Part shown: in pieces, positions 4,859 to 14,547 of the stretch
Layout of the letters: every line of letters begins with the position of its first letter
Numbering within the stretch: the first letter of the stretch is position 1
Origin: a virus
IMG/VR virus record: IMGVR_UViG_3300046491_000283
Coordinates: 1-44,613 of that record
Length of the DNA stretch: 44,613 nt
Strand: one strand, 5' to 3'
Position numbers and translations under genes: made by a program
The notes under the pieces: generated by a model
What the model was told of the DNA's origin: nothing
The model's database searches: none
The model's input: the letters and a program-made list of their open reading frames with translations, nothing else

Positions 4859-5515
4859 ATGGACATCCGTAAAGAGACAGCCCGACGCCTTCGCGCGCGG
4901 CGCCTTGAACTGGACCTAACCGTCGGCCAGGTCAGCGCCCGCATGCCCTCGCGCCCAAGCGACCCACGGTATAACCACTGGGAGAAGGGCGAGCGACTGC
5001 CCAAAATGGAGCAAATCCTGGAGCTGGCCGAAGCCTTGAACGTTTCGCCCGCCTACATCTGCGGCTTTACCCCGGACATGCACGACCAGATTCAGAACGC
5101 TTGCCAGTTCTCGACCTTCAAAAAGGCCGCCATATCGCTGCCCACGGGCGAGGTGGTACAGCTGCCGTCCGATCACTCGGTGCAGTTCAACATGGAGTCC
5201 CTGCGCGCGCGCGGCCTCAATCCGGAACGCTTGATTTTGCTGGTGGCCGATGGCAACAGCATGGCCCCCGTGTTGAATGAGGGCGATTTCGCCTTGGTCG
5301 ACCGCGATCAAAGGGTGCCCGAGCGAAAACGCGATATTTTTGCCATGCTGGTGCGAAATAAAGTGTGGTTCCGCTGGATTTGCCCGGAACTTGACGGTAG
5401 CTTTACGGTCACCGCCGAGGACGGCGAGCAACAAAGGGAAACACGGATAGAAGCGGACGCGCTCGATAAGCTGTGCATCATTGGTCGGGTGACGAATATT
5501 TCAAGTTACCGCTAG
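4859..5515 (+). CDS. XRE/S24-type phage repressor, catalytic Lys replaced
   Basis: A 218-residue CI/C2-like repressor. Residues 5-70 form an XRE helix-turn-helix (LTVGQVSARMPSRP, then WEKGERLPKMEQILELAEALNV). Residues 125-215 are an S24 peptidase-like dimerisation domain with the Ser134 motif GNSMAPVLNEGD. At the place of the catalytic Lys (VKRL in LexA) the sequence reads VWFRWI, giving Arg172, and no clear Ala-Gly cleavage site is seen before Ser134. Self-cleavage may be lost, so induction may need an antirepressor. It faces the early leftward promoter and is followed by a terminator at 5528-5550. It should maintain the plasmid-like lysogenic state. Confidence 0.85.
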   Translation: MDIRKETARRLRARRLELDLTVGQVSARMPSRPSDPRYNHWEKGERLPKMEQILELAEALNVSPAYICGFTPDMHDQIQNACQFSTFKKAAISLPTGEVVQLPSDHSVQFNMESLRARGLNPERLILLVADGNSMAPVLNEGDFALVDRDQRVPERKRDIFAMLVRNKVWFRWICPELDGSFTVTAEDGEQQRETRIEADALDKLCIIGRVTNISSYR

Positions 5516-13869: not shown

Positions 13870-14208
13870 TTACAGATCCGTTTCAGGGTCGCCCAGCTCG
13901 GCCAGCAACTCGGCGTTACAGGCATCACAGATGCCCATAGTTTGACTCGCGTGTGACTGGTAACGGTCCCTCGACTGGCACAGCCGGCACGGCGGGATCG
14001 CTTGCCAGGCAGCGGCGTCGGCCTCGTTTTGCAGGCGAACCACCAATTGCTCCCAGCTCTCGCCGGGTCGCGCTTGCAGCGCCAGGGCGTCACGCTGCGC
14101 CTGATTGAGGCCGTGCAGGAGCGGCAAATTTTCCTCATAACGACGCCAGCGACCGCGCCCGGGGGCGTCCCCCAGGTCTTTTAGGCCCTGCTCGATGGCG
14201 TTATTCAT
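13870..14208 (-). CDS. Zinc-ribbon-like small protein
   Basis: Start MNNAIEQ at 14208 is chosen for the AAAGGAGCG ribosome site upstream. Two CxxC pairs (CRLCQSR and GICDACNAE, about 20 residues apart) suggest one zinc ribbon near the C-terminus; the first 70 residues are helical. It is the first gene of a leftward group and shares its upstream region with the divergent SOS-box gene. Nucleic-acid binding is plausible. Confidence 0.6.
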   Translation of the reverse strand: MNNAIEQGLKDLGDAPGRGRWRRYEENLPLLHGLNQAQRDALALQARPGESWEQLVVRLQNEADAAAWQAIPPCRLCQSRDRYQSHASQTMGICDACNAELLAELGDPETDL

Positions 14209-14263
14209 GGTCCCCGCTCCTTTCATTGGTCGCCCCGATGCAGCGACGTGTCATGCTTAGCGA

Positions 14264-14283
14264 TATACTGTTTATATGTACAG
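14264..14283 (+). promoter_or_regulatory. LexA (SOS) box over a -10 element
   Basis: CTGTTTATATGTACAG (14268-14283) matches the SOS consensus CTGT-N8-ACAG exactly, and TATACT (14264-14269) overlapping it is a near-perfect -10. It lies 15 bases before ATG 14299. LexA should hold this promoter off until DNA damage. The same region could affect the divergent gene at 14208. Confidence 0.8.
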
Positions 14284-14298
14284 CCAAAGGCGCCCACC

Positions 14299-14547
14299 AT
14301 GCCCCGCGACTTGCCCCATTTCGAGCCTTTCACGATGGCCCAGCTGCGCGCCCTTTATGCGCAGCGTCCGGACAAAACCGTTCAACGCCTGGTGCTGGAA
14401 GTCGTGCGTTACCGCCAGGTCATGGCGGAAATCGACGACCTTTATAAGGTCACCCACGCGGCCTGGCGCAGCGACCAGGGCGACAACCTGATCGCGCTAA
14501 ACATGCTCCAGGTGGTCATGAACAAAGAGCGGCAACGCCTGCTTTAA
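14299..14547 (+). CDS. SOS-controlled small protein, candidate induction switch
   Basis: Start ATG 14299 has CAAAGG upstream. The 82-residue product (MPRDLPHFEPFTMAQLRALY, then helices with RLVLEVVRYRQVMAEIDDLY and LNMLQVVMNKERQRLL) is helical and soluble; no family recognised. It is the only rightward gene in the 8-18 kb region, lies alone behind a perfect LexA box, and is followed by an octamer array. Temperate phages with non-cleavable repressors often carry a LexA-controlled antirepressor (Tum of phage 186), and the resident repressor lacks its catalytic Lys. Antirepressor is therefore the leading guess. Confidence 0.6.
   Translation: MPRDLPHFEPFTMAQLRALYAQRPDKTVQRLVLEVVRYRQVMAEIDDLYKVTHAAWRSDQGDNLIALNMLQVVMNKERQRLL

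What the first reader, a model, noticed from the sequence alone, without database searches (positions are those of the whole stretch)
14264..14547. Lone gene behind a perfect LexA box, likely SOS trigger of the prophage
CTGT-N8-ACAG overlaps a near-consensus -10 just before an 82-residue gene of unknown family, the only rightward gene in the region. The resident repressor seems unable to self-cleave, so a LexA-controlled antirepressor is expected, as in phage 186 (Tum). This would be a new antirepressor family.
Basis: partly seen in the sequence, partly recalled or inferred. Interest (0 to 1): 0.78.

Follow-up and report, generated by a model that had tools for sequence, protein, structure and literature searches.

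The report
SOS-controlled partner gene of DNA-repair SRAP
The lone gene is real and under damage-response (LexA) control, but it belongs to an undescribed family of small helical proteins found on phages, plasmids and chromosomes, usually beside DNA-damage-tolerance genes in Burkholderiaceae, so it is more likely a DNA-damage helper than the switch that wakes the prophage.

Summary
A CTGT-N8-ACAG LexA box (14268-14283) overlaps a -10-like TATACT just before an 82-codon gene (14299-14547), the only rightward gene between about 8 and 44.6 kb. Within this window alone the box is weak evidence (0.4 expected by chance). Relatives make it strong: 55 of 82 non-redundant family members have such a box within 70 bp of the domain start (control 1.8%), and 68 of 82 within 270 bp (control 7.4%). 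The family matches no curated Pfam, NCBIfam or PADLOC model and has no known fold.

The antirepressor reading is not favoured. The gene sits on about 90 plasmids, including conjugative plasmids without annotated phage genes, in phages whose repressors keep the Ser-Lys dyad, and on Burkholderiaceae chromosomes. In 16 such genomes 21 of 37 SRAP (HMCES/YedK) genes lie within 2 kb of a family member (0.05 expected), 17 divergent. Four sequenced Burkholderia phages (Mana, Magia, KS9, BgManors32) carry the same pair. Others lie behind imuA or beside UmuD-like genes.

Best reading: an SOS-induced accessory of DNA-damage tolerance, probably acting with SRAP or translesion machinery. Partner and biochemistry are inferred. 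No description was found in the papers searched.

The parts
14264..14269 (+). -10-like hexamer TATACT overlapping the LexA box
   Evidence: read directly; no -35 match found
14268..14283 (.). LexA (SOS) box CTGTTTATATGTACAG
   Evidence: same element in front of most family members
14286..14290 (+). Shine-Dalgarno-like AAAGG, 8 nt before the ATG
   Evidence: read directly
14299..14547 (+). 82-codon gene, member of an undescribed family of small three-helix proteins
13870..14226 (-). 118-codon Zn-ribbon-like ORF reading away from the same intergenic region; could share the LexA box
   Evidence: weak zinc-ribbon hit; co-control not tested
4859..5515 (+). HTH-S24 phage repressor with Ser134 but the catalytic Lys replaced by Arg

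Best explanation
The gene encodes a small all-helical protein kept silent by host LexA and made when activated RecA inactivates LexA after DNA damage. It belongs to a mobile family whose members act in SOS DNA-damage tolerance, most often paired with SRAP (the HMCES/YedK family, which shields abasic sites in single-stranded DNA) and otherwise found with ImuA, UmuD/UmuC or other repair genes. In this phage it would be a stand-alone accessory that helps damaged phage or host DNA get through replication, working with host-encoded SRAP or translesion machinery. Shown by sequence: LexA box, family, distribution, genetic coupling. Inferred: that it works in damage tolerance. Inferred and weak: that it physically contacts SRAP or the replisome.
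For: LexA box within 70 bp upstream in 55/82 non-redundant members (control 1.8%) and within 270 bp in 68/82 (control 7.4%), in Pseudomonas and in Burkholderiaceae. Some apparent exceptions are explained: L015 lies second in an imuA operon that has its own box, and L009/L016 have a transposon or IS upstream. SRAP coupling: 21 of 37 SRAP genes in 16 genomes lie within 2 kb of a member, 17 divergent, 0.05 expected. Burkholderia phages Mana, Magia, KS9 and BgManors32 carry the gene divergent from SRAP with a perfect LexA box by the pair. imuA operon with SRAP and umuDC in L015/L104, SRAP + ExoIII + LigD in L105, UmuD-like genes within 600 bp in three Pseudomonas-type viral contigs. SRAP protects abasic sites in ssDNA (PMC9436759), and SRAP itself is associated with umuDC/imuAB (PMC3765255).
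Against: The window phage itself encodes no SRAP, and SRAP adjacency is not seen in the Pseudomonas elements, so the partner here would have to be a host protein. No fold match gives a mechanism. Shared LexA control can place functionally unrelated SOS genes side by side. Related genomes inflate the neighbour counts.
Confidence: 0.6

Rival explanations
1. Antirepressor: the protein binds the phage repressor after SOS induction and releases it from DNA, as Tum of 186 and GfoA/GftA of Gifsy do.
For: Lone LexA-controlled small gene outside the immunity region, and a repressor lacking the catalytic Lys; these resemble the features described for Gifsy antirepressors (PMC3121763). Phages of L037 and L052 show the same repressor change plus the gene. 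Several P2-like contigs carry it a few kb from the portal gene (P2-like by own reading of the neighbours).
Against: Family carried by conjugative plasmids without annotated phage genes and by chromosomes. Repressors of six other carrier contigs keep Ser and Lys. Neighbours are SRAP/Imu/Umu, not repressors. No hit to any antirepressor or regulator family.
Confidence: 0.13
2. SOS modulator: it binds RecA or LexA and tunes the response, like DinI or PsiB (or DdrR as a co-repressor in Acinetobacter).
For: Size, LexA control and a phage-plus-plasmid distribution resemble DinI relatives (own knowledge); imuA-operon and UmuD-adjacent members; DdrR is a small DNA-damage-induced protein divergent from umuDAb (PMC7273328).
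Against: Predicted all-helical; net charge about +2, unlike an acidic ssDNA mimic (own knowledge of DinI/PsiB). No sequence match to those families. The SRAP pairing is not typical of them.
Confidence: 0.17
3. SOS-induced growth or cell-division inhibitor carried by mobile elements.
For: Small, tightly LexA-controlled, lone genes of this sort exist (TisB, SulA; own knowledge).
Against: No toxin match; coupling to repair genes; some members sit inside repair operons.
Confidence: 0.07

Closest known systems
Tum (phage 186), GfoA/GftA (Gifsy), AntC (N15) LexA-controlled antirepressors
   Same: Small LexA-controlled gene outside the immunity region of a temperate phage whose repressor looks non-cleavable (PMC3121763)
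   Different: No sequence match; this family is also on plasmids and chromosomes and beside SRAP/TLS genes
DinI / ImpC / PsiB SOS modulators
   Same: Small, carried by phages and plasmids, SOS-linked (own knowledge)
   Different: No sequence match; predicted all-helical and slightly basic here
SRAP (HMCES/YedK) neighbourhoods with UmuDC, ImuAB-DnaE2, Ku-LigD (PMC3765255)
   Same: Same repair genes surround the beta-proteobacterial members
   Different: No small helical LexA-controlled partner was found in the main-text passages read; the supplement was not available
DdrR of Acinetobacter (PMC7273328)
   Same: Small damage-induced protein divergent from an SOS gene through one shared operator
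   Different: Reported only in Acinetobacter and controlled by UmuDAb, not LexA; sequences were not compared directly

Membership tests
LexA-controlled prophage antirepressors (Tum/GfoA type) | LexA box at the promoter | tested here: met
LexA-controlled prophage antirepressors (Tum/GfoA type) | Co-resident repressor that is not self-cleaved | tested here: inconclusive
   window repressor Lys to Arg, but other carriers keep Ser-Lys
LexA-controlled prophage antirepressors (Tum/GfoA type) | Family confined to elements that have a phage repressor | tested here: not met
   conjugative plasmids without annotated phage genes and bacterial chromosomes carry it
LexA-controlled prophage antirepressors (Tum/GfoA type) | Binds and inactivates the repressor | not testable with these tools
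   needs induction and binding assays
DinI/PsiB/ImpC | Sequence match to the family | tested here: not met
   no match in Pfam, NCBIfam or PHROGs
HolE/HOT theta subunit of Pol III | Sequence or fold match | tested here: not met
   profile and Foldseek searches of PDB do not return theta; considered only because of size and plasmid/phage occurrence
SOS regulon (LexA-regulated) genes | Conserved LexA box upstream across relatives | tested here: met
   55/82 within 70 bp, 68/82 within 270 bp, against 1.8% and 7.4% in control windows
SOS regulon (LexA-regulated) genes | Induction by DNA damage that depends on LexA cleavage | not testable with these tools
   needs a reporter or transcript measurement
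SRAP-associated repair module | Adjacent SRAP/TLS genes beyond chance | tested here: met
   for the beta-proteobacterial members; not met for the window copy itself

The most novel reading that the evidence does not exclude
An undescribed protein family, widespread on phages, plasmids and chromosomes of Pseudomonas and Burkholderiaceae, is the dedicated SOS partner of SRAP: it steers or releases SRAP (HMCES-like) at abasic sites in single-stranded DNA, and phages and plasmids carry it to survive or exploit host DNA damage.
Probability: 0.35. Interest if true: 0.78.

Novelty: new variant of a known kind. Interest (0 to 1): 0.62.

Why it matters
It adds a probable new SOS-regulon family and a candidate partner for SRAP, whose bacterial co-factors are little known, and shows that phages and plasmids mobilise this piece of the damage response. 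It also warns that a lone LexA-controlled phage gene beside a non-cleavable repressor is not automatically an antirepressor: surveying the relatives changed the reading. It gives a directly testable pair (SRAP plus this protein) in isolated temperate phages such as KS9, Magia and Mana.

Tried and rejected
tblastn of the window protein against 50,697 named phages found nothing; Pseudomonas-type relatives also found none, and only the Burkholderia form reached named phages. Single-protein scans of viral and genome contigs found nothing, and a broad alignment was too diverse to scan with; a tighter one worked. PDB profile hits (8g8i, 8eoz) are designed helical repeats and were treated as chance. 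PHROG 17852 weakly matches 12 members but has no function. The HolE/HOT idea was dropped for lack of any match. A first alignment of S24 proteins forgot the strand and was redone; a first pairwise alignment of the repressor with LexA was wrong and not used. The tandem-domain and paired structures (with SRAP or repressor) were not modelled: the structure tool takes single chains from limited sources. The gene tree is poorly resolved; plasmid and phage copies are mixed in it.

Full report
Observation. The LexA box CTGTTTATATGTACAG is at 14268-14283 and overlaps TATACT at 14264-14269. It is the only perfect CTGT-N8-ACAG in the window, but shuffled sequence gives 0.40 on average, so in isolation it is weak evidence. 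AAAGG lies 8 nt before the ATG at 14299; the ORF runs to 14547 with 82 codons. The record is a 44.6-kb virus record with terminase, portal, major head protein, tail sheath, baseplate and tape-measure genes read leftward, plus an integrase, an S24-type repressor and a ParA-like gene. The gene is the only rightward one from about 8 kb on.

Family. No curated Pfam, NCBIfam or PADLOC family matches and PHROGs gives nothing for the window protein. tblastn finds relatives on 94 plasmids, all below 60% identity (33-56% among the rows listed), mostly Pseudomonas with some Burkholderia, Caballeronia and Paraburkholderia. A profile-guided scan found 32 viral contigs and 6 genome contigs. In whole genomes it occurs in 9 of 300 of the Pseudomonas genus sample, 3 of 399 Pseudomonadota (one of them the centre genome) and 68 of 300 of the family of G642. 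Conserved are an N-terminal LPxF, R17, R30, L33, E34, R39, W56, G61, L64, E77 and R80. AlphaFold2 predicts three helices (13-22, 26-57, 62-81; pLDDT 84.6, pTM 0.60). Foldseek finds no match with E below 1 in PDB or BFVD.

LexA control is conserved. Of 38 newly fetched loci, nearly all Pseudomonas, 37 have a box with at most one half-site mismatch, 25-67 bp before the matched start and mostly 25-35 bp. Over 82 non-redundant members from both groups, 55 have it within 70 bp (1.8% of control windows) and 68 within 270 bp (7.4% of control windows). The larger distance in part of the Burkholderia set comes from an extra N-terminal domain in front of the helical domain. In Caballeronia L015 the gene is second in an operon whose first gene, imuA, has a perfect box.

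Is it an antirepressor? But among carriers with S24 repressors, only the window and the phages of L037 and L052 have that change; repressors in the contigs of L041, L051, L054, L055, L056 and L057 keep Ser and Lys. The gene also sits on plasmids with a type IV secretion system and no phage genes among the annotated features: pNY3045-NR and pPGS17-1. The known LexA-controlled antirepressors (PMC3121763) are phage genes with a cognate repressor. So an antirepressor is unlikely as the family function, though not excluded for this copy.

What keeps it company. In Burkholderiaceae the gene is typically divergent from SRAP, with the LexA box in or next to the intergenic region: 21 of 37 SRAP genes in 16 genomes lie within 2 kb of a member, 17 divergent, 0.05 expected. 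These genomes were chosen because they carry the family, and relatedness inflates the count, but the pairing spans several paralogue types and contigs. Burkholderia phages Mana, Magia, KS9 and BgManors32 carry the same pair with perfect boxes; Pfam confirms SRAP in all four. L015/L104 add imuA, umuD and umuC; L105 adds LigD and ExoIII; viral contigs L029, L050 and L052, which carry the Pseudomonas-type gene, have a UmuD-like gene within 600 bp. SRAP shields abasic sites in ssDNA (PMC9436759) and is known to cluster with TLS genes (PMC3765255), but the passages read there mention no such small partner.

Mechanism. Shown: conserved LexA box, family, mobility between phages, plasmids and chromosomes, coupling to SRAP/TLS genes in beta-proteobacteria and to UmuD-like genes in some Pseudomonas-type contigs. 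Inferred: a helper of damage tolerance made after SOS induction. Not known: its partner in this phage, which has no SRAP and would have to use the host's. A RecA/LexA modulator remains the nearest rival; the basic net charge (+2) argues against a DinI-like acidic mimic but does not settle it.

Noticed in passing
L034:6435-7586: The family gene reads in frame into a tyrosine integrase without a stop, a possible fusion or assembly deletion in an 8.9-kb contig.
   Followed up: no
L103, L179-L181: Burkholderiaceae chromosomal paralogue of about 226 aa made of two copies of the domain, with its own LexA box.
   Followed up: partly
L102, L156, L164-L174, L187-L189: Many Burkholderia members carry an extra N-terminal domain (K-P-x-WAY-x-WEY...) before the helical domain.
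   Followed up: no
window 13870-14226: A Zn-ribbon-like leftward ORF starts about 42 bp from the LexA box and may be co-controlled, echoing the divergent SRAP arrangement in relatives.
   Followed up: no
L004, L010 and other plasmid records: The gene is missing or annotated as an antisense ORF in many plasmid records.
   Followed up: no
L061, L062, L064: Small S24 (UmuD-like, 114-116 aa) genes lie near the family gene in viral contigs; the UmuC query found no match near them.
   Followed up: partly
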